Part shown: in pieces, positions 39,835 through 57,902 of the stretch | Position numbering within the stretch: position 1 is the stretch's first letter | Layout: each line of letters begins with the position of its first letter | IMG/VR virus record: IMGVR_UViG_3300035670_000119 | Location: 21,906 to 85,905 of that record | Direction: 5' to 3' (one strand) | DNA length: 64,000 nt | DNA from: a virus | Position numbers and translations under genes: made by a program | Notes under the pieces: model-generated | What the model saw: only the letters and a program-made list of their open reading frames with translations | Told to the model about the DNA's origin: nothing | Database searches by the model: none

Positions 39835-39863
39835 GGACCTGAGTATGTCCTTAAACTACTCAG
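39835..39863 (+). promoter_or_regulatory. UUAAAC pseudoknot element
   Basis: Stem 1 GGAC/GTCC (39835-39838, 39847-39850). Loop CTGAGTAT pairs through CTGAGTA with TACTCAG (39857-39863), a perfect 7 bp. The linker is TTAAAC. Stem 1 is compensated relative to CGTC/GACG in other copies. Confidence 0.72.
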
Positions 39864-39902
39864 TCCATCATACTCATCATCAACCTCAACTCCACATCAA
39901 CC

Positions 39903-40178
39903 ATGACCTACCCCGAAATCGACTGGAAGAAGAACGAGTACAAGCAATTGGAAGAAGCTTTGGACATACTCAAAGCTGTCATCGAACGTGAATCAAAGCG
40001 TCATCAAATGGATGAGCACTTAGTTCCAGGAGATAATGATATTGTCCAAGAAGCAATCGGTTTGCTTGAAGAGATCATTGACTATGACCCGACACCTAAC
40101 GAGCCTGGTGAACCTCCCATGACAATGGACGAAATGCACAGTGCTGCATGGAAAGAACACCAGGAGATGCACCGGTAA
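39903..40178 (+). CDS. Unidentified acidic early protein (91 aa)
   Basis: Two long helices (WKKNEYKQLEEALDILKAVI, DIVQEAIGLLEEIIDYDPTP) and a Met/Glu/His-rich end. Leader CAACTCCACATCAACC. Function unknown. Confidence 0.65.
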   Translation: MTYPEIDWKKNEYKQLEEALDILKAVIERESKRHQMDEHLVPGDNDIVQEAIGLLEEIIDYDPTPNEPGEPPMTMDEMHSAAWKEHQEMHR

Positions 40179-40188
40179 CAGCCAACTA

Positions 40189-40296
40189 GGGGGGACTAGT
40201 ACATAAGTACTTCCCCCCACACCCCCCGACAGAGTACCAGGGAATCCTTGGATTTATATAGGACATACTTATGTTCCATTCCCTTGACTCCCTGGT
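40189..40296 (+). promoter_or_regulatory. Large structured intergenic region with possible promoter
   Basis: The first hairpin pairs GGGGGGA with TCCCCCC, extended by AGTAC/GTACT (40189-40218). The second structure is an 8-bp outer stem ACCAGGGA/TCCCTGGT (40236-40243, 40289-40296) around two small hairpins (AATCC/GGATT and GGA-CATA/TATG-TCC), like a three-way junction. TTGACT at 40284 with TGTTAA 17 nt later could be a promoter for the next gene. Confidence 0.55.
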
Positions 40297-40329
40297 AGAC
40301 TGTCCTTGTTAATCAACTCATCTCAACCC

Positions 40330-40542
40330 ATGACTACTCCCAACACTCCACGTATACCTGACTCTCTTGACATGCAAAGACTTCAAGCTATGCAACTTGT
40401 TGCAAAGATGAAGGAATCAGCAGAGAGAAATGGTATTGGATTCATTGGTGGATTCATTGCTCCGAATGGAGAGAAGTTTGTCATGACCAACATGACAGAC
40501 GAAGATGACATCAATGCACTCATGCCGGAGGATCTTAAGTGA
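40330..40542 (+). CDS. Unidentified early protein (70 aa)
   Basis: Helix (LDMQRLQAMQLVAKMKESAE), then a beta hairpin (FIGGFIAPNGEKFVMTNMT) and an acidic end. ATG 40330 follows CATCTCAACCC; an earlier TTG at 40306 is less likely. Its stop overlaps the next start (GTGA). Confidence 0.64.
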   Translation: MTTPNTPRIPDSLDMQRLQAMQLVAKMKESAERNGIGFIGGFIAPNGEKFVMTNMTDEDDINALMPEDLK

Positions 40543-40874
40543 ATCAATCTCATCCCGTTATTCCAACCGAGTACCTGCTTGATGCTTGGCATCAGCAACA
40601 TCAACGATACAGAAAGAGCTTCAAAGAAATTCTTATTGAAGCTGCCCAATGGGGAGCTGATACAGAATTAGAAGAATGTTGTAAGCTATTCGAATCTAAT
40701 TCTGTATGTGGCACCAAGTTTCAGCGGAGATCTTCTGTTCGAGATCTACGTGAAAAGCGTAGACCTTCACCCAAGCAAAAGACATTGACAGTGTCAATCA
40801 CTGGTACTGAAGATGAACTTGAACAACTCATTCGCAAACTCAAACATGAACAACAAATCTCGATTGAACTTTGA
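40539..40874 (+). CDS. AAQWGAD-family protein, copy 1 (111 aa)
   Basis: Member of a five-copy paralogous family: HPVIPTEYLLDAW, then ILIEAAQWGADTELEECCKL and SVRDLREKRRPSPKQKTLT. Pattern: HPI-P--L---W, aAQWGAD-ELEaCC, LR--RRPK--SLKEQ. GTG start at 40539. The C-terminus departs from other copies. Related proteins are widespread in Synechococcus/Cyanobium and their phages; function unknown. Confidence 0.68.
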   Translation: MNQSHPVIPTEYLLDAWHQQHQRYRKSFKEILIEAAQWGADTELEECCKLFESNSVCGTKFQRRSSVRDLREKRRPSPKQKTLTVSITGTEDELEQLIRKLKHEQQISIEL

Positions 40875-41043
40875 CAAAACTATCGCAGGATTCAACATTA
40901 CCGAGCGCGGTGTGCGCTCGTACAGTAAATCAATTAAGCTTGGTCCATTCCAAGTAACACTTAACGCACGTGAGTCTGGCTTACGTGGTACCATTGGTAT
41001 CCCTGGCACAGGCGTTTCAATTCCAAACATTAAGCTAATCTAA
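40846..41043 (+). CDS. DUF4236-like small protein (65 aa)
   Basis: The sequence SIKLGPFQVTLNARESGLRG followed by TIGIPGTGVSIPN matches the DUF4236 core (f-ksikLgpg-r-nls-~G---~~G-pG~g-s). It is a short beta-rich domain of unknown function. ATG 40846 follows AAACTCAAAC and overlaps the preceding gene by 29 nt. Confidence 0.68.
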   Translation: MNNKSRLNFDKTIAGFNITERGVRSYSKSIKLGPFQVTLNARESGLRGTIGIPGTGVSIPNIKLI

Positions 41044-41106
41044 AGATCTGGGCATCCGAAAGCAACGCCGCGTCCAGGACACGCCGTAGGTGTAAGTCCC
41101 AGATCT
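41044..41106 (+). promoter_or_regulatory. UAAGU-bulge RNA element, copy 3
   Basis: P1 AGATCTGGG/CCCAGATCT (9 bp) starts at the base after the stop codon. P2 has CA/UG and CC/GG, with an inner GCGT/ACGC hairpin. UAAGU bulge at 41093-41097. Confidence 0.75.
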
Positions 41107-41129
41107 TGTCCACTAACTCAACTCAACTC

Positions 41130-41315
41130 ATGTCTGCTTACGTCGAAAACCTCACCTTGTTTGATCGCATCAATCTTGCTGCCTGCGCACAGCGCAGAGC
41201 AACAGAAAATGTGTTGGATTCAACACGATTCAATGGCGAGTTTGACACAGCACGTCTGTGGATGAAGTATCGCCTTGTCAAGTACAGCAACTATTCATTT
41301 ATCGAGGGCAACTGA
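41130..41315 (+). CDS. Unidentified early protein (61 aa)
   Basis: MSAYVENLTLFDRINLAACA, then DTARLWMKYRLVKYSNYSFI: a small helical protein. Leader CTAACTCAACTCAACTC before ATG. Stop overlaps the next ATG (TGATG). Confidence 0.62.
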   Translation: MSAYVENLTLFDRINLAACAQRRATENVLDSTRFNGEFDTARLWMKYRLVKYSNYSFIEGN

Positions 41316-41566
41316 TGACAGTCTTAGCAATCGAAAACACTTCATTCACTGACACTCATGTCACAGTTACAGCAGTTGTTGACGAGATGCGCCTGCTCTA
41401 TCGCGGAAGTCGTCTCGACCCTGAAGAGTGGGCTCCTGCATTGTGTCAAGCAACTATTGAGTTGGATCCAGAGGAACAAATCCCTCTTGATGAAGATGGC
41501 TTCTGTGCCTATCTTGATCACCTCGATCCTCAATGGCAAGTACTAGATCCGGAGGACATCGGATGA
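41315..41566 (+). CDS. Unidentified acidic early protein (83 aa)
   Basis: Beta-rich start (VLAIENTSFTDTHVTVTAVV), then Asp/Glu/Pro-rich (DPEEWAPALCQATIELDPEE). Coupled at both ends by overlapping start/stop codons. Function unknown. Confidence 0.64.
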   Translation: MTVLAIENTSFTDTHVTVTAVVDEMRLLYRGSRLDPEEWAPALCQATIELDPEEQIPLDEDGFCAYLDHLDPQWQVLDPEDIG

Positions 41567-41748
41567 TTGGCTTCTCAATTGAATTCAAACGTTGGTACTT
41601 TGTACTACGTGGTCCTAAGGGTCGTGTGTACTTGGCAACTGGCTTTGCTAAACGCATGCCAGTCATAACGCCGATTGGCACCTATGACATGGAACAGTAC
41701 ATCGAAGAGACGTCACTGTTCTTAGATATACATCGGTACGAAGACTGA
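41563..41748 (+). CDS. Unidentified early protein (61 aa)
   Basis: MIGFSIEFKRWYFVLRGPKG looks like a small beta sheet, followed by an acidic helix (YDMEQYIEETSLFLDIHR). ATGA overlap with the preceding gene. Confidence 0.64.
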   Translation: MIGFSIEFKRWYFVLRGPKGRVYLATGFAKRMPVITPIGTYDMEQYIEETSLFLDIHRYED

Positions 41749-41753
41749 TCACA

Positions 41754-41781
41754 CGTCCTGGACATGACGTTAAACTGTCTA
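41754..41781 (+). promoter_or_regulatory. UUAAAC pseudoknot element
   Basis: Stem 1 CGTC/GACG (41754-41757, 41766-41769). Loop bases TGGACA pair with TGTCTA (41776-41781), 6 bp with one G-U. Linker TTAAAC. Begins five bases after a stop. Confidence 0.75.
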
Positions 41782-41803
41782 TTTCATTTACTCATTTAAC
41801 CCA

Positions 41804-42100
41804 ATGGAAATCAATTCTCCAACGCCACCTTTAGATCTTGTTAATGATTGGATGACGCATTGGTATGACGACAATCAAACCGATGATACCCAAGAAATGT
41901 ACATTGCAACTAAGGCTGCAATGTGGGGTGCTATCTGGGGTGCTACTAATGCGTTAGAAACAGCTATCAAAGACACATCTCCTGTTCACTGGCGTGTAGC
42001 CGGTGGTGCAGAAGATGGTCAGCAAATAGTACGTGTTATTGATCTAATGGAATGGCTTGCACAATTCCGTAAAGAATATGAGGAGAAGATCAATGGCTGA
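41804..42100 (+). CDS. AAQWGAD-family protein, divergent copy 2 (98 aa)
   Basis: PTPPLDLVNDWMTHWYDD, then MYIATKAAMWGAIWGATNAL aligns with the HPI-P--L---W and IAT-AAQWGAD parts of the family. The ELEACC and RRPK parts are lost or degenerate. Directly followed by a copy of the second paralogous family. Confidence 0.64.
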   Translation: MEINSPTPPLDLVNDWMTHWYDDNQTDDTQEMYIATKAAMWGAIWGATNALETAIKDTSPVHWRVAGGAEDGQQIVRVIDLMEWLAQFRKEYEEKING

Positions 42101-42347
42101 ACTTTCACCAGTAGCAAAATCAATTTTGAAAGCTGCTTATAAAGCAACACGAATTCCTGATTGGCAGAATAAGTTTTATTCCAGCTATGCTGCTGCTGTG
42201 CTTCGTACTGCCGTAGAAAAAGTGATTTCAAAGGAATGGCCAACTATTGAAGACTACAACGAATACGATCAAGGCTTTGCTGCTGCACACATCAACTATC
42301 GAAATCAACTTTTAGATATTGCTGATGAACTTGAAAGCTTGACTTGA
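42093..42347 (+). CDS. LSP-family protein, copy 1 (84 aa)
   Basis: MAELSPVAKSILKAAYKATR, SYAAAVLRTAVEKVIS and a C-terminal LLDIADELESL. The pattern LSp-a-avl-Ay, AAALRaAadqVv, LLaIA-ELE is shared with the genes at 48085 and 48333. All-helical; function unknown. It overlaps the upstream gene by 8 nt. Confidence 0.68.
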   Translation: MAELSPVAKSILKAAYKATRIPDWQNKFYSSYAAAVLRTAVEKVISKEWPTIEDYNEYDQGFAAAHINYRNQLLDIADELESLT

Positions 42348-42352
42348 TCAAC

Positions 42353-42380
42353 CGTCCTGGATATGACGTTAAACTGTCCA
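42353..42380 (+). promoter_or_regulatory. UUAAAC pseudoknot element
   Basis: Stem 1 CGTC/GACG (42353-42356, 42365-42368). Loop TGGATA pairs with TGTCCA (42375-42380). Two positions change relative to the copy at 41754 while pairing is kept. Linker TTAAAC. Confidence 0.76.
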
Positions 42381-42402
42381 TTCCCTTTACCTACACTACA
42401 CC

Positions 42403-44130
42403 ATGCAATTTGCTCTGCCTTCCAACTTGCAAACTGAACTGCTTGCCTATGATCCAAAGCGCAAGGCTTTGGCTAAGCAACAACAGGCCAACAAACCAAG
42501 TGCTAAACCTAAATATCCACTTGGTAAGATTCCTTGTCTGATTCCAACGAATGTTGTACGTGAAGCAGATCAGCTAGCGGCTATCGAACGCATCAATCAG
42601 CAACCTGCACCACAGAGGTACCAGGTGTTTACTACGCCTGTGGATGTAGCAACTCCGCAGGCCAGACTCAAAGTCATTGCCATCCTGTATCACTATGAAC
42701 AGGTGTGGTATGCAGCATGGTTACCTCCCAAGCAGGAGAAAGATCAGTACATCTATGGTCATGCGTATGCATTCAAGAACACATCCGCAGCAGCAAATAC
42801 TGCACCTAATTGGATATGGAACAGCAAAGATAAGTGCATCATGCACGACATCGGTCGTGGTTCTCAACTCTTTACGTATATCAAGAATATAACAAGAGAT
42901 GAGATCACAGCTACCGATGGTAATGGCTGGACTAGTTACCAGTGGAAAGCAGCTAATCTTTTCCAGCGGAAGGGATATGAAATCCGTGACAATGCTGTGC
43001 ATCAATTCGAAGCAAGCCTAAGGGAAGACCTGCCAACATGGGAGGATTCACGTGGTTTGTTTGATCGCATCCGCTGCAAGAACATCTTTGATGCAGCAGG
43101 TATTCCACACATGACGTCAAGATACCTTGATGTCGAACGTGGTCTTACTGTTGAGAATTTTATTGATGGTGCAATTAAATTTAATGAAGAGAGTTGTGTT
43201 TCATTTACATACACATCTGTTGTAAAACTAACTCACATTATTACTAAACCTGCAATCCGTAAGCTATTACAAGAAGAACTTGATCGCAGCATCACCGCAT
43301 ATAACAATCCTAATAATAGGAATCAGCTACCTATTAAACAAGGCTTCAACACTTTTGTTCAGATCATTAACTCTATTGATTGGATCAATGACATCTGGCC
43401 TGACTGTCCTATTGATTATTATCAAACTTACTTTAAAGAACTGAAGTACATTCGATTGAATCAGGTGCGTGTATGTAATGTTAACAACCAGTCAGTATTG
43501 ATTCCTTGGTTACGTGAGCACATGCCAGTTGCATCTATGTTCACAATCATGCGTAAGTATCTTGAGCAGGATGAGCCTAGCCGTTGGACTGACAACGAAG
43601 TTGGTTATGCACGCCAGGGATTCTATCAGCTCAACGATACATTCTCAATGATCATTCGCATCCTAAGTAATGACAAAACACTTGAGCCTCCTAAGCGTTG
43701 GCGCCTGACTGAGTTCCACGACTATGTGCAAGCAGAGTCTTGGAAGATTGAGAATCCTAAGGAAACACTACGTCAAGATCTATTCCCTGAACCCATTAAG
43801 GTGAAGCGTCAAGATGAAGTGTGGACTTTCATCCAGCCTTTTGATACTCACCAGCTAGCAATGTGGGGCCAGGCTGTACGCAACTGCGTTGGCTCGGCAT
43901 CACACTATGCGGAAGATATTAAGAAACGTAAACACTTCATTGTGTTGTGCATGGTTGACGGCAAGCCCACCTTCACAATCCAACTGGTTGTGGATCAGGG
44001 CGTTATGTCTGTCAAGCAGATTGCTGGCGTTGCCAACAGGAGTCTGGACTGTCAGCAGCGTGAGGCCTATACCGAGGCATTCCGTGAGGCGTTGCAACTC
44101 CGTGAATCTGCGCTAGCATCTGAGAGCTGA
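42403..44130 (+). CDS. PcfJ-like domain protein (575 aa)
   Basis: The C-terminal 130 residues carry LAMWGQAVRNCVGSASHYAE, then FIVLCMVDGKPTFTIQLVV and VKQIAGVANRSLDCQQ. This is the pattern of the PcfJ-like family (l--eG---~nCv--Y---i---~~-i~-~~~~g~~~-Tie~), found in conjugative plasmids and many phages. The middle is helical and unidentified. Biochemical role unknown; the family is often near replication or accessory genes. It is the largest gene of this part of the arm. Confidence 0.72.
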   Translation: MQFALPSNLQTELLAYDPKRKALAKQQQANKPSAKPKYPLGKIPCLIPTNVVREADQLAAIERINQQPAPQRYQVFTTPVDVATPQARLKVIAILYHYEQVWYAAWLPPKQEKDQYIYGHAYAFKNTSAAANTAPNWIWNSKDKCIMHDIGRGSQLFTYIKNITRDEITATDGNGWTSYQWKAANLFQRKGYEIRDNAVHQFEASLREDLPTWEDSRGLFDRIRCKNIFDAAGIPHMTSRYLDVERGLTVENFIDGAIKFNEESCVSFTYTSVVKLTHIITKPAIRKLLQEELDRSITAYNNPNNRNQLPIKQGFNTFVQIINSIDWINDIWPDCPIDYYQTYFKELKYIRLNQVRVCNVNNQSVLIPWLREHMPVASMFTIMRKYLEQDEPSRWTDNEVGYARQGFYQLNDTFSMIIRILSNDKTLEPPKRWRLTEFHDYVQAESWKIENPKETLRQDLFPEPIKVKRQDEVWTFIQPFDTHQLAMWGQAVRNCVGSASHYAEDIKKRKHFIVLCMVDGKPTFTIQLVVDQGVMSVKQIAGVANRSLDCQQREAYTEAFREALQLRESALASES

Positions 44131-44142
44131 AGCCACAGCAGG

Positions 44143-44170
44143 GGGATCCTATCTTCGTTATATGGATCCC
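44143..44170 (+). terminator. Intercistronic hairpin with short T tract
   Basis: GGGATCC/GGATCCC with a 14-nt loop, followed by TCTTT. May be an attenuating terminator before the next gene. Confidence 0.5.
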
Positions 44171-44179
44171 TCTTTACCT

Positions 44180-44398
44180 ATGACTGACTACACCGATGAT
44201 CAGTTACTTGCTATGGCCATGGCAAACCTTGGCGAATACATTCACGAAAACTCACCACACTATGTATTGATTGAAGAAGATTCTCGTAACGAGGATGACT
44301 ACGACACATGGGAGTACGGCACTGAGCCGTTACCTCAAGACCACACTTGGCACTCCACATCAATTGATGTAGAGGTAAGTCCAAGTGAGGCCGACTAG
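44180..44398 (+). CDS. Small acidic protein ending inside the tRNA gene (72 aa)
   Basis: Strongly acidic (EDSRNEDDYDTWEYGTEPLP). ATG 44180 is chosen over 44162, which lies in the hairpin. Its last 20 codons contain a complete UAAGU-bulge RNA element, and its TAG stop lies inside the first 10 bases of tRNA-Leu. Translation and tRNA processing must therefore compete on one transcript. Confidence 0.62.
   Translation: MTDYTDDQLLAMAMANLGEYIHENSPHYVLIEEDSRNEDDYDTWEYGTEPLPQDHTWHSTSIDVEVSPSEAD
44344..44387 (+). promoter_or_regulatory. UAAGU-bulge RNA element, copy 4, inside a coding region
   Basis: P1 CACTTGG/CCAAGTG (7 bp). P2: C-G, bulged A, CTC/GAG, C-A mismatch, ACATC/GATGT closed by AATT. UAAGU bulge at 44376-44380. 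It ends one base before the tRNA 5' end. Confidence 0.75.
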
Positions 44399-44464
44399 CC
44401 CAACGGCAGAGGCAAGCGACTTAAAATCGCTCAAGTCCCGGTTCGAATCCGGGGTCGGCTACCA
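44389..44464 (+). tRNA. tRNA-Leu (anticodon UAA), short variable loop, CCA encoded
   Basis: Acceptor GGCCGAC/GTCGGCT (G1-U72), U8 A9, D-stem GCC/GGC, anticodon stem AGCGA/TCGCT with loop CTTAAAA (anticodon TAA), five-base variable loop CAAGT, T-arm CCCGG-TTCGAAT-CCGGG, discriminator A and encoded CCA at 44462-44464. Bacterial tRNA-Leu normally has a long variable arm, which is missing here. Confidence 0.9.
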
Positions 44465-44483
44465 ATTTACTTAACAAAATCCA

Positions 44484-44744
44484 ATGACTTCAACAAACGA
44501 TCGCTTTACTTTTTTCTCACGTGATGGAGTTAAAGTTCCTATAAATTGTCATCATTGTTTTTATTACATTCCAATGGATGATAATACTGGCGAATGTCAT
44601 TACCATCCACCTGTTGGAAGGAATTTTGAATATGAACATATAGAAGACATTCCTGACAAACCAACAGAGTGGCTTTTCCCTACATTAGATGGTGCCAATT
44701 ATTGTTCTAAATGGAAATGGAGTGGAGAACGAAAAGTAAACTAA
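44484..44744 (+). CDS. Small Cys/His protein, probable zinc binder (86 aa)
   Basis: INCHHCFYYIPMDDNTGECH, then YHPP and a late NYCSKWKW give C-x2-C...C-x-H...C. This arrangement suggests a zinc-ribbon-like site. AT-rich compared with neighbours, which may indicate different origin. Starts 20 nt after the tRNA. Confidence 0.66.
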   Translation: MTSTNDRFTFFSRDGVKVPINCHHCFYYIPMDDNTGECHYHPPVGRNFEYEHIEDIPDKPTEWLFPTLDGANYCSKWKWSGERKVN

Positions 44745-44765
44745 GAAGTTTTTAGTTCTTAAATG

Positions 44766-44794
44766 ACTAGGCATCTTACGGTGTAAGTCCTAGT
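44766..44794 (+). promoter_or_regulatory. UAAGU-bulge RNA element, copy 5 (minimal form)
   Basis: P1 ACTAGG/CCTAGT, P2 CATC/GGTG with loop TTAC, UAAGU bulge at 44784-44788. At 29 nt it is the shortest copy and defines the core. Confidence 0.75.
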
Positions 44795-44819
44795 TACCAA
44801 ATCACACTCAATTCACATC

Positions 44820-45182
44820 ATGCAAATCTTTGCCGCTTTCAAACATCTCATTCCTGAGTTCCATGCATTTAGTGATGAGGACAAGCGTTACAACATCGGT
44901 GCTACCTGGACCGATAACGATGGCCTGCGAGACTTCCACAATCTTGAGATGCGGTACGTCCGTAACTCAGAGCGCCTTGCTCTCCAGGGGGAGCCTCAGC
45001 CTGATGGTTCATGGAAGTACGTGGAACCCAACGGCAACACACACGTCATCTCAGCGGAGCGTGCACGTCACTTCATGGAAACCACACAAGCTCACGCCAG
45101 CATGATGTGTGACATGCTTGAGCGCCTGAAAAAGGCTGGCCTTTATGACAAGTTCATTGACACCGAGGCACGGCCTGCCTAA
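44820..45182 (+). CDS. Unidentified early protein (120 aa)
   Basis: Globular composition (MQIFAAFKHLIPEFHAFSDE, RYNIGATWTDNDGLRDFHNL), ending in helices (RLKKAGLYDKFIDTEARP). Leader CACACTCAATTCACATC. Closed by a terminator. Function unknown. Confidence 0.66.
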   Translation: MQIFAAFKHLIPEFHAFSDEDKRYNIGATWTDNDGLRDFHNLEMRYVRNSERLALQGEPQPDGSWKYVEPNGNTHVISAERARHFMETTQAHASMMCDMLERLKKAGLYDKFIDTEARPA

Positions 45183-45202
45183 GATCACAGCGGAATGTTC
45201 GG

Positions 45203-45229
45203 CCCCTGCACAAGCGGGGGTCTTTTCTT
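45203..45229 (+). terminator. Rho-independent terminator
   Basis: CCCCTGC/GCGGGGG around ACAA, followed by TCTTTTCTT. The next ATG is two bases on, so the structure also abuts a start codon. Confidence 0.78.
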
Positions 45230-45230
45230 C

Positions 45231-45560
45231 ATGATCAGTTCATTGCAATCAGAAACAGCAACAGATGTAATGCAACTTATTGCAGATTGTATTCCAGATT
45301 CCGAATGGTATCGGGTACGCAATGCAATTGTTGAACGCATTGTTGATAACATGCCAGGTGAAATTTTATTCAGGTTGACAAACAGCCATGATGACTTTGA
45401 TTTGGCTGAGATTATTCTTAAAACTCATTACGAAGAGTCTCCAAATGTTGAATTAATTGCCGATGCATTTAAGCTCATTGGCTCTGAGCAAACAGCAGAT
45501 CTTCTCGATTCATTGAACATTCAAGAAACAGATGGCATTTCAAAAGGCAATCCTTCCTGA
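45231..45560 (+). CDS. Unidentified acidic helical protein (109 aa)
   Basis: ATG 45231. Repeated helical units (VMQLIADCIPDSEWYRVRNA, IVERIVDNMPGEILFRLTNS, DLAEIILKTHYEESP) look like a small helical-repeat domain. Overlaps the zinc-ribbon gene by 29 nt. Function unknown. Confidence 0.64.
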   Translation: MISSLQSETATDVMQLIADCIPDSEWYRVRNAIVERIVDNMPGEILFRLTNSHDDFDLAEIILKTHYEESPNVELIADAFKLIGSEQTADLLDSLNIQETDGISKGNPS

Positions 45561-45903
45561 CTGCCCTGAATGTAAACAACCTGGACTCAGAGTTATTGAA
45601 TCAAGGAAGACTGATCTATCTACAAGACGCAGAAAGAAATGTGATTACTGTGGCTACAAGGTTACAACCCATGAAGTTACAGCAGACTTCTTTGAAGAAG
45701 CCAAGCAGAATCAAATTCTGGTTAAGCAAATGCGTAATCTTCTTGGTGCAGACCTACCCATTCCTGGGGTAGAACCACCCCAGATGGGGGTGGAAATCAA
45801 ATGTGACGAATGCGTGCACAACAATGGCAAGCGTTGTGCATTTGACTTTCCAGAGTACGGCACAGATGAGTCGTATGATTGCAATCAGTATTCACTACCA
45901 TGA
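45532..45903 (+). CDS. NrdR-type zinc ribbon protein without ATP-cone (123 aa)
   Basis: Residues 11-48 (CPECKQPGLRVIESRKTD, then STRRRKKCDYCGYKVTTHE) match the N-terminal zinc ribbon of NrdR, including the RRR-C---C----T--E block; Zn ligands C11, C14, C37, C40. NrdR represses ribonucleotide reductase genes, sensing nucleotides through an ATP-cone. Here the cone is absent and replaced by a helix and a second Cys cluster (IKCDECVHNNGKRCAFDF, ending in DCNQY). It might bind NrdR boxes of the host or act as a decoy. ThyX is two genes downstream. Confidence 0.76.
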   Translation: MAFQKAILPDCPECKQPGLRVIESRKTDLSTRRRKKCDYCGYKVTTHEVTADFFEEAKQNQILVKQMRNLLGADLPIPGVEPPQMGVEIKCDECVHNNGKRCAFDFPEYGTDESYDCNQYSLP

Positions 45904-46247
45904 CACAAGAGCATTCAATCACGCCAGCGCCAGAGCTAATTACAGAATGGATTGAAAATTATTTTGGTTGCGTTGTTACCGGCGCACTTTCTGATCTTGA
46001 AACTGCTATTGCTACACAAGCTGCCCAATGGGGTGCTGACCAGGAACTTGAATCATGTTGCGCATGGGTTGATTGGAAATGCTCAGGCAATAACGCTCGC
46101 CAGCTTCGAGAAGATCGACGCTCCAAACCGCTGAGCTTGAAGGAACAATCCATTGCCTTGCTTGACTTGATCCAAGAAAGCAAGAAGCCTTGGCAGCTTG
46201 AAGACCTAGACGTAGTGCGCCGCGCCCTTGAACAACTACCTGATTAA
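45900..46247 (+). CDS. AAQWGAD-family protein, copy 3 (115 aa)
   Basis: MTQEHSITPAPELITEWIEN, TAIATQAAQWGADQELESCC, LREDRRSKPLSLKEQSIALL and DLDVVRRALEQLPD. Shares 30 C-terminal residues almost identically with the gene at 47476, so duplication is recent. Start overlaps the preceding stop (ATGA). Function unknown. Confidence 0.7.
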   Translation: MTQEHSITPAPELITEWIENYFGCVVTGALSDLETAIATQAAQWGADQELESCCAWVDWKCSGNNARQLREDRRSKPLSLKEQSIALLDLIQESKKPWQLEDLDVVRRALEQLPD

Positions 46248-46251
46248 CCCC

Positions 46252-49718: not shown

Positions 49719-49738
49719 ACATTCCCGAACGGGAAGAT

Positions 49739-49766
49739 GGACCTGAGCACGTCCTTAAACTACTCA
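49739..49766 (+). promoter_or_regulatory. UUAAAC pseudoknot element
   Basis: Stem 1 GGAC/GTCC (49739-49742, 49751-49754). Loop TGAG pairs with CTCA (49763-49766), then one mismatch and one more pair. Linker TTAAAC. A TTCCCG-CGGGAA hairpin lies directly upstream. Confidence 0.66.
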
Positions 49767-49801: not shown

Positions 49802-50566
49802 ATGAAACTTCTCAAGTTTTCCACCGGCAACGGCAAGCTCAAGAACCGACTCATCTTTAACCTGCCTGCTGGTTATGCATGCCCGCACGCTGGTGTGTGC
49901 AAGACCTTTGCTGATCGCACCACAGGTCAGATCACTGACTTGCCTCAGTACACAGGTGTCACAGCAGACCTTGAGTACCGCTGCTTTGCTGCCATGGCAG
50001 AGACCCGTCCCACCGTACGGGAAGCACGCTGGCACAACTGGGATCTACTGCGTGAAACCATTCACATGAATGGGAACCAAGCTGTGCTGTTGCGTGATCT
50101 GATCGACCTATCACTCTTGATGCAGCCAGCTAAAGAACTCATCCGTATCCATGAGAGCGGTGATTTCTGGACCGAGAACTATATGAAGGCGTGGATCATG
50201 GTTGCACAAAGTCGTCCACAACAGAAGTTCTATGCATACACCAAGTCTCTTGGTATGTGGTACAACTTGCGTGACATCATTCCTGACAACTTTTATCTCA
50301 CCGCATCACACGGCGGTACGCTCGATTACCTGATCGACAAGTATCCTGATGTGTACCAGCGGGTTGCTCACGTTGTCTATACAGAAGAGCAGGCGGCAGA
50401 GCTTGGACTCAGCATCGATCATGATGACAGCCATTGCTTAGGTAACAAGCCGTTTGCACTCCTGGTCCATGGATCCCAACGTGCTGGGTCTGATGCCATG
50501 GCTGCTATCACACAACGCAAGAAAGATGGCAAGTTTGTAGGCTACGGTAAGACAAACAAGAAATAA
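49802..50566 (+). CDS. GP88-like phage protein (254 aa)
   Basis: It begins with STGNGKLKNRLIFNLPAGYA followed by CPHAGVCKTFADRTTG, and has ELIRIHESGDFWTENYMKAW. This order (f-tGN-Kl---i-nLpAG--CP-A--C, then RiH-SGDF-s--Y---W) matches the mycobacteriophage Gp88-like family as I remember it. The paired Cys may bind a metal cluster. Biochemical function unknown. It has its own pseudoknot element and leader (CAGCTCAACTCAACACC). Confidence 0.7.
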   Translation: MKLLKFSTGNGKLKNRLIFNLPAGYACPHAGVCKTFADRTTGQITDLPQYTGVTADLEYRCFAAMAETRPTVREARWHNWDLLRETIHMNGNQAVLLRDLIDLSLLMQPAKELIRIHESGDFWTENYMKAWIMVAQSRPQQKFYAYTKSLGMWYNLRDIIPDNFYLTASHGGTLDYLIDKYPDVYQRVAHVVYTEEQAAELGLSIDHDDSHCLGNKPFALLVHGSQRAGSDAMAAITQRKKDGKFVGYGKTNKK

Positions 50567-50578: not shown

Positions 50579-50628
50579 TTGCGGATCAGGTGAAATCAGA
50601 TATCATGCACCTGTCTTTCATCTGATCC
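50579..50628 (+). promoter_or_regulatory. Candidate promoter with nested inverted repeats
   Basis: TTGCGG (50579) and TATCAT (50601) have a 16-nt spacer. CAGGTG/CACCTG flanks the -10 region, and GGATCAG/CTGATCC encloses the whole block. The nested dyads could be an operator or alternative RNA hairpins ahead of the replication genes. Confidence 0.45.
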
Positions 50629-52663: not shown

Positions 52664-52668
52664 CTACC

Positions 52669-52920
52669 ATGGCAACCAAACGCACACCTACTCTTAAACA
52701 ACTTTTTAATACATGGAAAAGGTATAAAAAAATACAAAGTCAACTAACACAAATTCAACACGAGTTAAACAGCATGGCTCAAAAGATTGACTATGCTACT
52801 GAGTTAATTCGTGATGAAGATAATGTATATAGAGTTACTGCCAAGGGCCGTTATGGTTGTTATGAAATTGAACAAATTGCTTGCGCAGAAGAACTAAACA
52901 ATCTCCTAACCAACTCCTAA
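52669..52920 (+). CDS. Small coiled-coil protein (83 aa)
   Basis: Basic N-terminus (TKRTPTLKQLFNTWKRYKKI), heptad-like helix (QSQLTQIQHELNSMAQKIDY), then a small beta part. Situated between polymerase and SSB. Possible replication accessory factor; inferred from position. Confidence 0.66.
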   Translation: MATKRTPTLKQLFNTWKRYKKIQSQLTQIQHELNSMAQKIDYATELIRDEDNVYRVTAKGRYGCYEIEQIACAEELNNLLTNS

Positions 52921-52938
52921 TTATCTCCAAATTAGGAG
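52914..52938 (+). repeat. Hairpin directly before a pseudoknot element
   Basis: CTCCTAATT/AATTAGGAG, a perfect 9-bp stem that includes the stop codon of the 83-aa gene. The pseudoknot starts two bases later. Confidence 0.65.
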
Positions 52939-52940
52939 TT

Positions 52941-52968
52941 CGTCCTAAGCATGACGTTAAACTGCTTT
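52941..52968 (+). promoter_or_regulatory. UUAAAC pseudoknot element before the SSB gene
   Basis: Stem 1 CGTC/GACG (52941-52944, 52953-52956). Loop AAGCA pairs with TGCTT (52963-52967); all five pairs differ from the TGGACA copies, so stem 2 is supported by covariation. Linker TTAAAC. Confidence 0.76.
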
Positions 52969-52988
52969 AACACTACCCATCTGATCTG

Positions 52989-53807
52989 ATGAATTACGTT
53001 GATGTTTGTGCAATCCTGAACGAGGAACCTCGTCAGGTGTATACAAGTGCAACCGCATTCAATTACTGCGCAGAAGTAACGCTTCCGCCAGCTAGCAACA
53101 ACAAAGCTCCTACCGTACTTGCCCTCAATGTCTACGGGAAAACTGGCGAAGCATTCAAGGGAATGCCTAAAGGAGCCAGGATTTATATTCACGGCGCCAA
53201 GTTACGGTTTGATGTCCAATCAAAAACGTATTCGCTCCATGGAGGAGTTGTTGCTCAAGTTACTGAAGCATTCCCCGTCTTTAACGACGTGATCTTAACT
53301 GGTCGTTGCATCAAAGATATTGATCAAACAGATGCACGCGCTTTTAAAACAACGGCTGATGGTTTGATGATTGCCAATCAAACACTATCAGTTAATACTG
53401 GTCGCAACCAAGCTGATCTGTTCAACTTCTACGCTATTAACACAGCGCAAGACAAGTTCAATCAAGCTGAATTGCTTGTGAACTTTACCAAGAAGGGAAC
53501 AGGTATTACGATTCGTGCTCGCCTTGTTACCGATGCATGGACCGATAAAGAAACACAAGAGCGGCGAAGTGTTACCAAGTTACAGTTGATTAATATGACT
53601 CTTGCTCCTAAGAGCAGTGAGTCTCAACCGAAACAAGTGACATCTCAGACAACGGTTGCATCCACCGAGAATGTTGCTAACCTATGGGGCGGCAAGACCG
53701 TTGAGGAGTCCACTGATCCCTGGACTGCAGGCCCCAACACTGGACTGCCTGACCTCCCTGGTCAATACGGCAACGCACCTGAATTTAACGACGAACCTCC
53801 ATTCTGA
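52989..53807 (+). CDS. Single-stranded DNA-binding protein with two OB folds
   Basis: 272 residues. Two SSB-like halves: residues about 1-105 (YCAEVTLPPASNNKAPTVLA, then GARIYIHGAKLRFDVQSKTY) and about 95-215 (VILTGRCIKDIDQTDARAFK, LLVNFTKKGTGITIRARLV, RSVTKLQLINM). A disordered linker and an acidic tail GNAPEFNDEPPF follow; the tail ends like the bacterial SSB tip DDDIPF that recruits partners. Two OB folds in one chain differ from the usual single-OB tetramer. It probably coats ssDNA for the nearby polymerase. Confidence 0.82.
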   Translation: MNYVDVCAILNEEPRQVYTSATAFNYCAEVTLPPASNNKAPTVLALNVYGKTGEAFKGMPKGARIYIHGAKLRFDVQSKTYSLHGGVVAQVTEAFPVFNDVILTGRCIKDIDQTDARAFKTTADGLMIANQTLSVNTGRNQADLFNFYAINTAQDKFNQAELLVNFTKKGTGITIRARLVTDAWTDKETQERRSVTKLQLINMTLAPKSSESQPKQVTSQTTVASTENVANLWGGKTVEESTDPWTAGPNTGLPDLPGQYGNAPEFNDEPPF

Positions 53808-54061
53808 TGTCAACTCAGCCCGAAGATCAATTTACTTTCCTCTATGAGGACGGTAAACGTAAAGTCCTGCATGAGTTCCAGGGCATTGCAACTGATGAAA
53901 TTGTTGATGAGATGATCCAATTCCTTCGTGGTGTTGGGCATCTCGAAATCAATATCATCGAACGGCTGCATGAAATCTCAAGACAATATCTTGAGTTATA
54001 TGAAGCTACGTCAACGATCAAACTGCCGATGCAGCAGGATGATCTTGATGAAGTAGAGTGA
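53807..54061 (+). CDS. Unidentified acidic protein after SSB (84 aa)
   Basis: QFTFLYEDGKRKVLHEFQGI, then a long helix (MIQFLRGVGHLEINIIERLH) and acidic end. Start overlaps SSB stop (TGATG), so it is coupled to it. Function unknown. Confidence 0.66.
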   Translation: MSTQPEDQFTFLYEDGKRKVLHEFQGIATDEIVDEMIQFLRGVGHLEINIIERLHEISRQYLELYEATSTIKLPMQQDDLDEVE

Positions 54062-54066
54062 TCTCT

Positions 54067-54094
54067 CGTCCTCTGGTACGACGTTAAACTGCCT
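54067..54094 (+). promoter_or_regulatory. UUAAAC pseudoknot element
   Basis: Stem 1 CGTC/GACG (54067-54070, 54080-54083). The nine-base loop pairs GGTA with TGCC (54090-54093), four pairs with one U-G. Linker TTAAAC. Confidence 0.66.
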
Positions 54095-54115
54095 GTCCTT
54101 GACTACGAAACAACC

Positions 54116-55135
54116 ATGACTACTGCCATGACGACCAAGAAAACTGCTGCGCTTGCAACCAGGAGCCTCGATTCTTTCAAACTCTTCCAATCCAAAGAAT
54201 TTGTCTCTGGATACCAAAATCTGGTTACTATTCAACCCCTTAACAAATCCAAAGTCCGAGGTTGGTTTGTGCGGAAATCAGACCTGGACACTTGCGGATG
54301 GAGTGCCACTGAAAATCAATTTGCTAAAGGTTCAGTTATCTGGGACTACAAACAAACTTTTGGTATGGCTCCCAACACTTCAATTGAAGAAGGACTTAAT
54401 TTTACTGAGCCTCGTTTGCAAATCCTTTTACGTTCTCCCCTCATGGTTGAGGAGACAACAGGGATGAGGCAGACGATCGGAACCTTTGAGGATCCGGAAG
54501 TCAAAGCCATGTTTGATAACGACAAAGTAGCCGCTGATCTTGCCAACAGCAAAGGTGAGATGTACAAACGTAAGTACAGCGTACGCACAAAGTACCTGGT
54601 CTACATCCTGACCGAAGACAACAAGCGTGCACATAAGATTCCTATGGTGCTTACACTCAAGGGTCTTAATGGCACGGATGTCAGCGACAAAGTCAAGCTG
54701 TACGAAAAAGAGATGTCCAAGTGCCTGAGCAAGGCGCTGGACTCTGAGGTACCCCTGGCATTCAACGAGAAGTTCTATGCCACCACGGTGTTTGTTCCCG
54801 TACTTGCCAACGAGATGCGTGGTGCAAACAACGTGGAGATCTGTGCTATCGAATCGTTTGAGATTCCGGATTACAGCACGCAAGATGAAGCGATTAATTC
54901 GCTTAATCGCCTCAGCATTCCTGATGAAGATCGTGAATCAACCTGGAAATTCCAGGAGATGTTCAGCGATTACATCAATCAGCATGCAAGACAGGATGCA
55001 CAGAAGCTTGGTGGTGCCTATGGAATCAAGGAGGGTGTTGAAATTCTCCCCGTTTCTCGTACCACGGATGCAGTAGATGTGAAAGCATTGCCTGCCCGTG
55101 ATCCTCTGACTGGTGAGGATGATTCACTCCTTTGA
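54116..55135 (+). CDS. Conserved phage/cyanobacterial protein, possibly DUF5895-like (339 aa)
   Basis: A single globular protein (FVSGYQNLVTIQPLNKSKVR, PRLQILLRSPLMVEETTG, YLVYILTEDNKRAHKIPMVL), ending in a charged low-complexity tail (ARDPLTGEDDSLL). The LQILLRSPL and Y-LVYiL segments resemble a cyanobacterial family that I recall as DUF5895, with low certainty. It sits in the replication cluster. The 3' end overlaps a convergent gene by 12 nt. Confidence 0.66.
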   Translation: MTTAMTTKKTAALATRSLDSFKLFQSKEFVSGYQNLVTIQPLNKSKVRGWFVRKSDLDTCGWSATENQFAKGSVIWDYKQTFGMAPNTSIEEGLNFTEPRLQILLRSPLMVEETTGMRQTIGTFEDPEVKAMFDNDKVAADLANSKGEMYKRKYSVRTKYLVYILTEDNKRAHKIPMVLTLKGLNGTDVSDKVKLYEKEMSKCLSKALDSEVPLAFNEKFYATTVFVPVLANEMRGANNVEICAIESFEIPDYSTQDEAINSLNRLSIPDEDRESTWKFQEMFSDYINQHARQDAQKLGGAYGIKEGVEILPVSRTTDAVDVKALPARDPLTGEDDSLL

Positions 55136-55333
55136 TTTCTGCATGTAATTCTCTTGCATGAGATCCATAGCATCAGAGACCAATCCTTTGATTGCTATTT
55201 GACGTTGTGTAGCGATCTTGGTCAACAAGGTCGCTATTTCTTTTAGCTCACTTACCGAATTACATTCATTGATTTGACGTATCATCTTTTCTTGCCAGAA
55301 AGAATCTTCTGGTGAGATTTCAAATTTCAACAT
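55124..55333 (-). CDS. Leftward small helical protein (69 aa)
   Basis: MLKFEISPEDSFWQEKMIRQ, then INECNSVSELKEIATLLTKI and ATQRQIAIKGLVSDAMDLMQ. This has the look of a conserved picocyanobacterial/cyanophage protein with a helical bundle. ATG 55333 is used instead of TTG 55342. Convergent with the 339-aa gene. Function unknown. Confidence 0.66.
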   Translation of the reverse strand: MLKFEISPEDSFWQEKMIRQINECNSVSELKEIATLLTKIATQRQIAIKGLVSDAMDLMQENYMQKSKE

Positions 55334-55412
55334 GTTATTCAATTAGTTTGTATCATTCTACGTACCCATTTAAACTTGACCTGATTCCACTGAATGTGTT
55401 AAGGATTACAAA

Positions 55413-55616
55413 ATGAAACCTGAAGACAAAGCAGCTCTCAAGGTGGGAGGTGCCACAGCCCTGATTGTTGGTACCATTGCGTTTTGCATACCAAACCCCG
55501 CTGCCTGGGCGGCAGTGATCTGGGGATCGTATAAGATGGGTAAGCAGGCCAGGGATCGAGAGATCAGCCGGCAGGCCAAGCGTCACTGGTCTGCGGACCA
55601 GGACAACACCATCTGA
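55413..55616 (+). CDS. Small membrane protein (67 aa)
   Basis: A hydrophobic hairpin (GGATALIVGTIAFCIPNPAA, WAAVIWGSYKMG) followed by a basic tail (ARDREISRQAKRHWSADQ). Could be one or two spans. ATG 55413 follows TACAAA. Confidence 0.66.
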   Translation: MKPEDKAALKVGGATALIVGTIAFCIPNPAAWAAVIWGSYKMGKQARDREISRQAKRHWSADQDNTI

Positions 55617-55624
55617 TTCAAACC

Positions 55625-55789
55625 ATGCGTAAACTATTCCAGCTCTTGTGGATAGGCCATGAACACAAATGGAAGATCATTGAAGAAAGTAGTTTTCAAT
55701 ACGAAGGTAGCTTTAGTAGTTACCGATGCATTCGTTACTACCTTCAATGCGAGGTATGCGGTGATGTAAAAATACGCGACATGCGTTAA
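55625..55789 (+). CDS. Small Cys-containing protein (54 aa)
   Basis: MRKLFQLLWIGHEHKWKIIE, then YRCIRYYLQCEVCGDVKIRD. The pattern GH-HkW-i-E---C-----C--Cg--k is like a small treble-clef or ribbon zinc site. Too short for many gene callers; its leader is CTGATTCAAACC. Confidence 0.6.
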   Translation: MRKLFQLLWIGHEHKWKIIEESSFQYEGSFSSYRCIRYYLQCEVCGDVKIRDMR

Positions 55790-55814
55790 CAACCAATTCA
55801 ATTTGATTTAATCC

Positions 55815-56765
55815 ATGACAACTCAACTTCAACAACAAGAATTAAATCCTGCGCAAGCTCTAATCTACACACGTACTAATATCAGTCGTGCATTCCAGGG
55901 GTTTGATGACACCGAAATTGCTGGCATTTATCTGCGAGGCGATGATTGTCTTGTGGTGCGTCGCGATGGTAGTGAGCAGACTTACCCAAGGGAGCTAATC
56001 AAGCTTGCCTTTACCAATTACACTAACCGTCTTAAAGATTTCTTTTCTTACCTTGGTCCTAATTATCGTGGCCCTAGTGTATGGCACAACAATGCTTACA
56101 TTATGTTTAAGGGCTGGCACTACACGCACGCACTCGGACACCTGACTTCCAATGCAAAACTACAAGCTCACTGGGCAGACAAATTTATACACCTATCAGA
56201 CTCCAACAAGCTCATCACCCTCCTTCAATCTGACCAAACGGACATTGGACATCTGGTTGCGCCGGACGGGTTGCGGCTTACGAATCGGCCGATTGATTTG
56301 GACTCTGACATGGAGGAAGAAGGGTCAGGTGTATCGCCCGTCACTCCTGAACCTTATTGCTCATGTGGGTCCTTTCAGCGTCAGCTTCTTAATGTTTCAG
56401 AATTTCAGGCTGAGATCCAGGGATTCAAACCCTGGTGCATCCACCTGAGTTGGTTCAACAAGTACAGAGAGTTGCTGTGCAAACGCACAGAAGCACGTAA
56501 CGCCAGTCCCAGTGGCACACCTGAGAAGTGCGTGGCCTGGTGGTATGCACCGCCTAAGGACTCAATCAGTGACGGACGCTTTGTATTGTTGTATACAAAC
56601 CATGGAGCACAAGCTCCTCTCAGTCACTGGCGTACCTACAAACCTAACGAAGTGTTTACTCAGCACCATGCATGGGATCTGTTTTTCAATATGATGGAGG
56701 CTTCCTACGTACCATTCCCTGGAATTTCATTACCTCAACTCAAGTCCGCAATCAAGAAACAATGA
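55815..56765 (+). CDS. SWIM-type zinc-finger protein (316 aa)
   Basis: PEPYCSCGSFQRQLLNVSEF, then GFKPWCIHLSWFNKYRELL fits the SWIM motif C-x-C-x(n)-C-x-H, a zinc site that binds nucleic acid or protein. The N-terminal half is globular without recognised motif; the C-terminal part has GRFVLLYTNHGAQAPLSHWR. Likely a DNA- or RNA-associated protein. No SD; leader CAATTCAATTTGATTTAATCC. Confidence 0.72.
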   Translation: MTTQLQQQELNPAQALIYTRTNISRAFQGFDDTEIAGIYLRGDDCLVVRRDGSEQTYPRELIKLAFTNYTNRLKDFFSYLGPNYRGPSVWHNNAYIMFKGWHYTHALGHLTSNAKLQAHWADKFIHLSDSNKLITLLQSDQTDIGHLVAPDGLRLTNRPIDLDSDMEEEGSGVSPVTPEPYCSCGSFQRQLLNVSEFQAEIQGFKPWCIHLSWFNKYRELLCKRTEARNASPSGTPEKCVAWWYAPPKDSISDGRFVLLYTNHGAQAPLSHWRTYKPNEVFTQHHAWDLFFNMMEASYVPFPGISLPQLKSAIKKQ

Positions 56766-56965
56766 TTGAAAACGAAATTGATTACAAAACTGAATACCAC
56801 CGTATTGCCCATACTGTGAGCAAACACTTTCCCGAATGTGAAATCACCACACTTGATATGGTGAAACTTTTAATCCATGAAAACAACACGCTTCGAATGG
56901 CCCTTAAGATTCCAATTGCTCGTAATGTACTCTGGCGTATAGAAACTGATGACAATGACGGATGA
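56762..56965 (+). CDS. Unidentified early protein (67 aa)
   Basis: MIENEIDYKTEYHRIAHTVS, then CEITTLDMVKLLIHENNTLR: small helical, perhaps a coiled-coil end. Start overlaps the preceding stop (ATGA). Function unknown. Confidence 0.66.
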   Translation: MIENEIDYKTEYHRIAHTVSKHFPECEITTLDMVKLLIHENNTLRMALKIPIARNVLWRIETDDNDG

Positions 56966-57443
56966 CATCTTTGGCTACGCACGTCTGGTCCCTCACTCCC
57001 GTTTGTGGAAGAGCAGCTCGATGACTGATGACACCCTTGAATACGCACGTCAACTTGTTGCAAACCAACCCATGAAACTTCCAGCGCATCGCAACTACCA
57101 TCTTGAAATTCCTGATGATTTGCATTGGGAGTTAGTCAGGCTTGGCGCAGAACTTAAGATGGACTATGAAGTTTATGCAGAAGAAATTCTTAAGATGCAC
57201 GCAGAAGATGCAATAAGTAAACGGATTGTTGCCAGGGCATACAACGATCCGAGCTGGGTGTACAAACTCAACCTTGAATGTATTGAAGAAGAAGATGGTT
57301 CCATGACCATTCACATCGAGTGGGATGAAAAGGATCCTGATCTTCAATACTGGACAAACCTTGGGTCCAAGGGGCAGGAAAACCTTATACTGACTGCGTT
57401 GCGCTCCGCTTGCAACTCTGTTTTATCCAATCATGACAATTGA
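56949..57443 (+). CDS. Unidentified acidic protein (164 aa)
   Basis: KLPAHRNYHLEIPDDLHWEL, then VRLGAELKMDYEVYAEEILK and SMTIHIEWDEKDPDLQYW. The middle resembles a small ribbon-helix-helix-like segment (iP-~l---l---A---~-s---y--~-l). ATGs at 56949, 56955 and 57021 are all possible. Function unknown. Confidence 0.64.
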   Translation: MTMTDDIFGYARLVPHSRLWKSSSMTDDTLEYARQLVANQPMKLPAHRNYHLEIPDDLHWELVRLGAELKMDYEVYAEEILKMHAEDAISKRIVARAYNDPSWVYKLNLECIEEEDGSMTIHIEWDEKDPDLQYWTNLGSKGQENLILTALRSACNSVLSNHDN

Positions 57444-57849
57444 CACCTACGGCCTCACCACTGAACAATACACTGAGTTCTTCCATAAGAACTTAAGGTT
57501 TGCTGCCAAGCTTTACCTTGATACCTGCAACATCTTGAGCAGTGAAGGAGTCGGCAATGTTGACTTCAAAACTGTCTTAGATATGTACCAGGAAGCTGTG
57601 TACACAACCAATGATGACTGCCGTCGTTATCAAAAGAGCAACAACCCCGAAGCTCTGAAGGAAAACGATGTGTATGGCGTTGTTTCTTCTCGCGAAGAGC
57701 TTACTCAAATGATTGAAACATTGGTAACTTACACAGAGGCTCTTGATGCCAAACTTGAAGCACTGACCGAGTACGTCAACAACCTAGTCACTGTTACCAC
57801 AGCAGGTCTTGAGGGTATTGCCACGACCCTTGATGACAAGGTAGACTGA
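57433..57849 (+). CDS. Unidentified helical protein (138 aa)
   Basis: TTEQYTEFFHKNLRFAAKLY, then SREELTQMIETLVTYTEALD and a long C-terminal helix (EALTEYVNNLVTVTTAGLEG). Overlaps the previous gene by 11 nt. Function unknown. Confidence 0.66.
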   Translation: MTIDTYGLTTEQYTEFFHKNLRFAAKLYLDTCNILSSEGVGNVDFKTVLDMYQEAVYTTNDDCRRYQKSNNPEALKENDVYGVVSSREELTQMIETLVTYTEALDAKLEALTEYVNNLVTVTTAGLEGIATTLDDKVD

Positions 57850-57874
57850 CCACGCACAAGCCTTGCAGGGTCGC

Positions 57875-57902
57875 CGTCCTGGTCATGACGTAAAACTGAC
57901 CG
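57875..57902 (+). promoter_or_regulatory. UUAAAC-type pseudoknot element (UAAAAC variant)
   Basis: Stem 1 CGTC/GACG (57875-57878, 57887-57890). Loop TGGTCA pairs with TGACCG (57897-57902), five Watson-Crick pairs plus one U-G. The linker is TAAAAC. Confidence 0.75.

What the first reader, a model, noticed from the sequence alone, without database searches (positions are those of the whole stretch)
39835..57902. A repeated H-type pseudoknot with a UUAAAC linker in gaps between early genes
Seven good copies (39835, 41754, 42353, 49739, 52941, 54067, 57875) and one weak copy (36185) share a plan. Stem 1 is 4 bp (CGUC/GACG or GGAC/GUCC), and the loop opens with CU. Loop bases pair with sequence just after a UUAAAC or UAAAAC linker. 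Stem 2 covaries: TGGACA/TGTCTA, TGGATA/TGTCCA, AAGCA/TGCTT, TGGTCA/TGACCG, GGTA/TGCC, CTGAGTA/TACTCAG. Stem 1 also covaries between copies. All lie after a stop codon and 20-40 nt before the next start codon, on the rightward strand only. Topology recalls preQ1-I riboswitches and viral nuclease-stop pseudoknots, but the conserved bases do not match any family I know. Possible roles: RNA processing site, exonuclease block, or translation control of SSB, PcfJ-like and GP88-like genes.
Basis: partly seen in the sequence, partly recalled or inferred. Interest (0 to 1): 0.92.

Follow-up and report, generated by a model that had tools for sequence, protein, structure and literature searches.

The report
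Widespread phage RNA pseudoknot between genes
A tiny knotted RNA of about 27 letters, found six or seven times between genes of this cyanobacterial virus, turns out to recur in viruses of many unrelated bacteria, matches no entry in the Rfam RNA library, and shares its core with a plant-virus knot that stops RNA-eating enzymes, so it is probably a roadblock that protects pieces of viral messages.

Summary
The window (85.9-kb relative of Synechococcus phage S-EIV1) has six strict copies of an H-type pseudoknot plus one with a single mismatch, all on the + strand; 0.08 expected. The "weak copy" at 36185 fails. Plan: S1 (4 bp, ends C-G) - CU - S2 (4-6 bp) - W - S1' - NWAAAC - S2'. Mutual information ranks the S1 and S2 pairs highest. 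Copies occur in phages of cyanobacteria, Firmicutes, actinobacteria and alphaproteobacteria, not in 5,426 E. coli genomes at the sensitivity used. No Rfam family matches; no description was found in the papers searchable here. The core (CGUCC...GACGUUAAACU) matches the Xrn1-blocking coremin motif of plant RNA viruses, but coremin's loop rule and second hairpin are missing. Copies start 5-6 nt after stop codons, follow conserved downstream genes (SSB, PcfJ, GP88, scaffold) in some phages, and directly precede tRNAs or hammerhead ribozymes in others. Best reading: a mechanical roadblock against RNA decay, punctuating phage polycistrons. Which side it protects is unsettled.

The parts
39835..39863 (+). 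Pseudoknot copy 1: S1 GGAC/GUCC, S2 (C)UGAGUA/UACUCA(G), L3 UUAAAC; 39 nt before ORF 39903-40178
41754..41781 (+). Copy 2: S1 CGUC/GACG, S2 UGGACA/UGUCUA; 5 nt after stop of ORF 41533-41748, 22 nt before ORF 41804-42100
42353..42380 (+). Copy 3: S1 CGUC/GACG, S2 UGGAUA/UGUCCA; 5 nt after a stop, 22 nt before the PcfJ-like gene. S-EIV1 has it before its own 'MEFRL..' gene with compensatory changes in S1 and S2 (and L3 UUAAAG)
42403..44130 (+). PcfJ-like gene downstream of copy 3
   Evidence: PF14284, 30.2 bits, cut-off 25
49739..49765 (+). Copy 4, imperfect: S1 GGAC/GUCC, S2 GAGCA/UACUC with one C.A mismatch; 36 nt before the GP88 gene
49802..50566 (+). GP88-family gene downstream of copy 4
   Evidence: PF17338
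52941..52967 (+). Copy 5: S1 CGUC/GACG, S2 AAGCA/UGCUU; directly after a hairpin (about 52912-52940); 21 nt before the SSB gene; S-EIV1 has a copy at the same place before its SSB gene
52989..53807 (+). Single-strand DNA-binding protein gene downstream of copy 5
   Evidence: phrog_44; PF00436
54067..54093 (+). Copy 6: S1 CGUC/GACG, 9-base loop, S2 GGUA/UGCC; 5 nt after a stop, 22 nt before the DUF5895 gene
54116..55135 (+). DUF5895 gene downstream of copy 6
   Evidence: PF19247
57875..57902 (+). Copy 7: S1 CGUC/GACG, L3 UAAAAC, S2 UGGUCA/UGACCG; 22 nt before a short ORF 57925-58038 (MFE...), a start found after copies in related contigs too
36185..36212 (+).

Best explanation
A compact, probably protein-free mechanical roadblock: an H-type pseudoknot whose fixed bases (C in loop 1, NWAAAC in loop 3) lock the two stems together, while both stems are free in sequence. 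Placed between the stop codon of one phage gene and the start of the next, it marks a boundary in the polycistronic RNA that decay enzymes coming from the 5' side (RNase J 5'-3' exonuclease, or RNase E scanning in hosts without RNase J) cannot easily pass. The downstream message (SSB, GP88, PcfJ-like; scaffold and capsid in Firmicutes phages) would then outlive the upstream one. Shown here: the fold by covariation, its wide phage distribution, its intergenic placement and spacing, its tracking of particular downstream genes in some phages, and its shared core with coremin. Inferred: that it blocks decay enzymes in the cell, and the direction of protection.
For: Covariation of both stems on sequences not chosen for it. 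The conserved bases are those a pseudoknot needs; 46 S1 and 26 S2 pairings occur, leaving little sequence for a specific protein to read. The core CGUC-C..-GACG-UUAAAC-U equals the plant-virus coremin xrRNA core (GUCCGAAGACGUUAAACUAC), which stops Xrn1 and also stalls scanning ribosomes (PMC10520033); a flaviviral xrRNA stops bacterial RNase J1 (PMC5760640). Copies avoid coding sequence: 282/321 lie outside ORFs of 100 codons or more, against 104/321 random positions. In the set dominated by relatives of this phage, copies stay with the downstream gene while the upstream gene changes: 289 pairs share only the downstream family, 79 only the upstream family; the PcfJ-like, SSB, GP88 and scaffold families have 7, 6, 4 and 6 distinct upstream families. 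Some copies lie just behind terminator-like hairpins with a T-run (10/405). 34 of 49 host genomes carry a full-length RNase J match (32 over the cut-off), and the motif was not found in 5,426 E. coli genomes.
Against: About 14 of 49 host genomes show no convincing RNase J (Aminicenantes, Polynucleobacter, Flavobacteria, Muribaculaceae, Beggiatoa), and a near-copy lies in crAss-like phage cr7_1 and a copy in Vibrio phage D456, so RNase J cannot be the only target. Many of the bins are MAGs, and no background rate was measured. tRNA genes (27 copies, several lineages) and hammerhead ribozymes lie directly downstream, which a device protecting a downstream mRNA does not explain. The start 5-6 nt after the upstream stop codon ties the motif at least as closely to the upstream gene. 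No RNA-end, decay or probing data were available.
Confidence: 0.42

Rival explanations
1. The pseudoknot caps the 3' end of the upstream message: after cleavage just downstream (RNase P at a tRNA, a hammerhead ribozyme, an endonuclease in the spacer) it stops 3'-5' exonucleases such as PNPase or RNase R, much as REP hairpins do in E. coli.
For: Start is most often 5-6 nt after a stop codon in every group, almost never closer. In 27 of 405 copies a tRNA starts 3-12 nt downstream (Asp in most, also Ser, Met, Glu, Leu), whereas upstream tRNAs occur only in one tRNA cluster; Arthrobacter phage Molivia is SSB - motif - tRNA-Gly. Hammerhead cores lie downstream in 5 cases, four of them 23-28 nt away, and none upstream; Rfam places a hammerhead directly after a copy in L147. 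3'-5' exonucleases are nearly universal, so hosts without RNase J are no problem.
Against: In the cyanophage set the motif follows the downstream gene, not the upstream one. Some copies come after a terminator-like hairpin, where the upstream message already has a stable end. Most of the tRNA-Asp cases are one lineage.
Confidence: 0.27
2. A ribosome bumper or translation insulator: sitting just ahead of the terminating ribosome it stops post-termination drift into the next start site, tRNA or ribozyme, or helps initiation on the next gene.
For: Spacing of 5-6 nt after the stop and 19-22 nt before the start leaves just the room two ribosomes need (ribosome footprints from general knowledge); coremin stalls scanning ribosomes in vitro (PMC10520033).
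Against: Copies behind terminator-like hairpins and tens of bases from any stop exist. Bacterial ribosomes do not need a barrier at most gene junctions.
Confidence: 0.13
3. A recoding signal (readthrough or frameshift stimulator) acting on the upstream stop codon, as in MuLV or luteoviruses.
For: Stop-to-pseudoknot spacing of 5-9 nt is that of recoding pseudoknots (comparison from general knowledge).
Against: In-frame extensions after the stop are short (median 16 codons), stop codons are an ordinary mix of TAA, TGA and TAG, and no shared sequence was seen before the stop in the contexts read.
Confidence: 0.03
4. A binding site for one conserved host or phage factor, or a small-molecule sensor, acting in regulation of the downstream gene.
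For: Invariant loop bases could also be contacts; some downstream gene families recur.
Against: 159 upstream and 113 downstream gene families, hosts from many phyla, both stems free in sequence; no expression platform and no Rfam riboswitch match.
Confidence: 0.1

Closest known systems
Coremin / xrRNA-C (Xrn1-resistant RNA of benyviruses, cucumoviruses and others)
   Same: 4-bp hairpin CGUC/GACG in most cyanophage copies, loop opening with a pyrimidine (C), loop 3 / spacer UUAAAC followed by U, often in untranslated or intergenic regions
   Different: Phage loop is 7-10 nt and lacks the YGAD/YGNNAD rule (second base U or C, not G); the second hairpin is replaced by a 4-6 bp pseudoknot stem with the loop; phages and bacteria instead of eukaryotic RNA viruses; resistance untested
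Flavivirus and tombus/luteovirus xrRNAs
   Same: Mechanical RNA block idea; flaviviral xrRNA shown to stop RNase J1 (PMC5760640)
   Different: Larger folds, different sequences
preQ1-I riboswitch and luteovirus frameshift pseudoknots (from memory)
   Same: Small H-type topology, A-rich third loop, one-base junction (luteovirus)
   Different: Different conserved bases; no riboswitch match in Rfam; no recoding signature
REP hairpins / terminators as mRNA stabilisers (from memory)
   Same: Intergenic RNA structure that could protect one segment of a polycistron
   Different: Simple hairpins, not a sequence-free pseudoknot with fixed loops

Membership tests
Coremin xrRNA-C | 4-bp hp1 followed by a UUAAAC-type spacer | tested here: met
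   against PMC10520033
Coremin xrRNA-C | lp1 of consensus YGAD or YGNNAD | tested here: not met
   loop is CU/CC plus S2 plus W; position 2 is U or C
Coremin xrRNA-C | second hairpin (hp2) directly downstream | tested here: not met
   hairpin in the next 70 nt in 39/405 copies against 30/405 in shuffles; S2' occupies that place
Coremin xrRNA-C | stalls Xrn1 (5'-3' exonuclease) | not testable with these tools
   needs an in vitro assay
Any Rfam 15 family | score above the family's gathering cut-off at the motif | tested here: not met
   window: only two tRNAs; best weak matches at one copy are unrelated; no match overlapping the motif was seen in 38 further loci
Type III antitoxin RNA (ToxI-like) | tandem pseudoknot repeats upstream of a toxin gene | tested here: not met
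   mostly single dispersed copies with 113 downstream gene families; no toxin search was made for each locus
Stop-codon readthrough / frameshift pseudoknot | conserved open frame beyond the stop | tested here: not met
   median extension 16 codons
Intrinsic terminator | U-run directly after the stem | tested here: inconclusive
   not the rule: T is 35% of the first ten bases downstream; seen by eye after a few copies (e.g. L329, L318)

The most novel reading that the evidence does not exclude
DNA phages of many bacterial phyla carry a common, undescribed exonuclease-blocking pseudoknot that is the prokaryotic counterpart of the plant-virus coremin xrRNA, used as portable punctuation that sets the stability of each message in a polycistron; coremin itself would be a shortened H-type pseudoknot of the same fold.
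Probability: 0.35. Interest if true: 0.95.

Novelty: new variant of a known kind. Interest (0 to 1): 0.88.

Why it matters
A 27-nt RNA element this common and this strongly covarying, matching no Rfam family, gives an immediately testable answer to how phages set different lifetimes and levels for genes on one transcript, and suggests that exonuclease-resistant RNAs, so far described from eukaryotic RNA viruses in the papers read here, also exist in bacteria and their phages. It would also be a short, protein-free part for stabilising or bounding mRNAs, and offers a structural model (H-type pseudoknot) for coremin, for which PMC10520033 reports no solved structure.

Tried and rejected
Chance: rejected (0.08 expected per window). 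DNA-level element such as a promoter or recombination site: rejected, because both stems covary in one strand sense. Known Rfam RNA: none at the copies; Rfam hits nearby (DUF2800 RNA, tRNA, hammerhead, RAGATH-5) are separate neighbours. Recoding: no open extension. RNase J dependence as a strict rule: not supported, about 14 of 49 hosts lack a convincing match. AU-rich cleavage site after the motif: only slight (0.63-0.64 A+U in the first ten bases against 0.57 far away). First S1 offset used was wrong and gave no pairing; corrected. The Alteromonas R22Y BLAST hit did not show the pseudoknot in the stretch printed, and the stretches printed for Microcystis Mwe-JY13 and MG945738 Microviridae missed their hits; none of these is counted. 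L161 is not a CRISPR spacer. Paper searches found no earlier description, but the library is open-access only and supplements were not readable.
Full report
What is there. The window lies in an 85,905-base virus record related at about 69% DNA identity to Synechococcus phage S-EIV1. Between its rightward genes stand copies of one small element: CGUC CU GGACA U GACG UUAAAC UGUCU and variants. A strict descriptor finds six copies, all on the + strand, against 0.08 expected in resampled sequence; a seventh (49739) has one mismatch in stem 2.

Conservation at matching places. S-EIV1 has four strict copies and a fifth with UUAAAG in place of UUAAAC. Copies stand before SSB in both phages, and by position and neighbouring genes before the GP88, DUF5895 and PcfJ-type genes (the S-EIV1 proteins were not all scanned). 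Before the PcfJ-type gene S1 changes from C-G to U-A and two S2 pairs change on both sides, and the fold is kept.

Distribution. A pattern with stem 2 fixed and stem 1 free gave at least 116 stretches in GTDB genomes and at least 120 in IMG/VR. In these sets the free stem pairs far above shifted controls, with 26 different S2 and 46 different S1 pairings. Mutual information on thinned sets ranks S1 pairs 1-14, 2-13, 0-15 and S2 pairs 7-25, 8-24 first; 6-26 falls among the top four. Named phages with the motif include those of Mycobacterium (Labelle), Arthrobacter (Molivia), Nostoc (NMeng1), Synechococcus (S-EIV1, S-H35), Lactobacillus (phiEF-1.1, phig1e), Staphylococcus (B236, StB12), Moorella (MTATph1), thermophilic D6E, Paracoccus (ParMal1), Lentibacter ICBM3 and Roseobacter SIO1, and Vibrio D456. 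Near-copies, such as a 3-bp stem 1, occur in crAss-like cr7_1 and in a Raphidiopsis phage. No match was found in 5,426 E. coli genomes with one consensus query, and one marginal match in 72,556 plasmids.

Anatomy. Consensus: S1 (4 bp, last pair C-G), C, U (or C), S2 (4-6 bp; U5 can pair with A27), one base (U or A mostly), S1', N W A A A C, S2'. The constant bases are those of a small H-type pseudoknot; both helices are otherwise free. Copies avoid long ORFs. The start lies 5-9 nt after the stop codon of an upstream frame in a large share of cases, most often 5 or 6, and almost never closer, in viral, genome and S-EIV1 sets alike; shifted control positions show nothing of the kind. Upstream and downstream genes belong to 159 and 113 families, so the element is portable.

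Context clues on function. In the set dominated by relatives of this phage the motif stays with particular downstream genes while upstream genes change (289 against 79 pairs), and in several Firmicutes phages it lies before scaffold and capsid genes. A few copies follow terminator-like hairpins. Elsewhere it lies 3-12 nt before tRNA genes (27 of 405, mostly one tRNA-Asp lineage but also Ser, Met, Glu, Leu, and Gly in Molivia), directly before hammerhead ribozymes, or directly before the DUF2800 RNA. The first set of facts favours protection of the downstream message, the second favours capping of the upstream message. Both fit a structure that decay enzymes cannot pass.

Comparison with the known. 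A full-text search for the core string led to PMC10520033: the coremin motif GUCCGAAGACGUUAAACUAC of plant viruses, which stops Xrn1 and stalls scanning ribosomes. The 4-bp stem, the loop pyrimidine and the UUAAAC-U spacer agree in register; the loop rule and the second hairpin do not, so the phage motif is not filed as coremin. I infer that the phage S2 does the job that the second hairpin does in coremin. A flaviviral xrRNA stops RNase J1 in vitro (PMC5760640), so such a block is possible in bacteria. RNase J is found in about 34 of 49 host genomes but clearly not in all, so the enzyme need not be RNase J alone; RNase E scanning and 3' exonucleases remain possible.

Verdict. The RNA structure is established as far as sequence can establish it; it matches no Rfam family, and no description was found in the open papers searched. 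A mechanical roadblock that punctuates phage polycistrons is the best explanation. The direction of protection and the enzymes involved are open and are cheap to test.

Noticed in passing
L240 (Ignavibacteria CP054675.1) 1772, 2894, 3033, about 5920; L173 and L209 one each: Spacers of CRISPR arrays contain the motif: four in one array of 98 repeats, one each in Saprospira and an Oscillatoriaceae MAG. Either the motif is so common in phages that it is often captured, or stable RNA is captured; array orientation and Cas1 type were not checked.
   Followed up: partly
L137, L138, L141, L158, L168, L216: Rfam DUF2800 RNA (RF02960) begins directly after the motif, so the two may form one leader in gut phages.
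   Followed up: partly
L147 minus strand (two copies), L194, L199, L259: Hammerhead ribozymes (L199 seen by eye only) start at the 3' end of the motif; by the type III layout cleavage would fall a few bases after the pseudoknot.
   Followed up: partly
L308 7403-7560; L073 near 7252; L374 (crAss cr7_1) near 1170-1230: Apparent tandem copies or near-copies of the pseudoknot within about 100 bases, as tandem xrRNAs occur in flaviviruses.
   Followed up: no
L129, L131, L241, L376 after the motif: Firmicutes phages share a further leader after the motif (U-rich stretch, then a hairpin, then RBS and scaffold gene).
   Followed up: no
window 52912-52940 and about 49725-49738; 405 copies in general: Hairpins often abut the motif on its 5' side (88/405 within 70 nt against 51 in shuffles; 31 end within 10 nt).
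   Followed up: partly
window 44389-44461 (+), 63641-63712 (-): Two tRNA genes in the window; neither is next to a motif copy.
   Followed up: no
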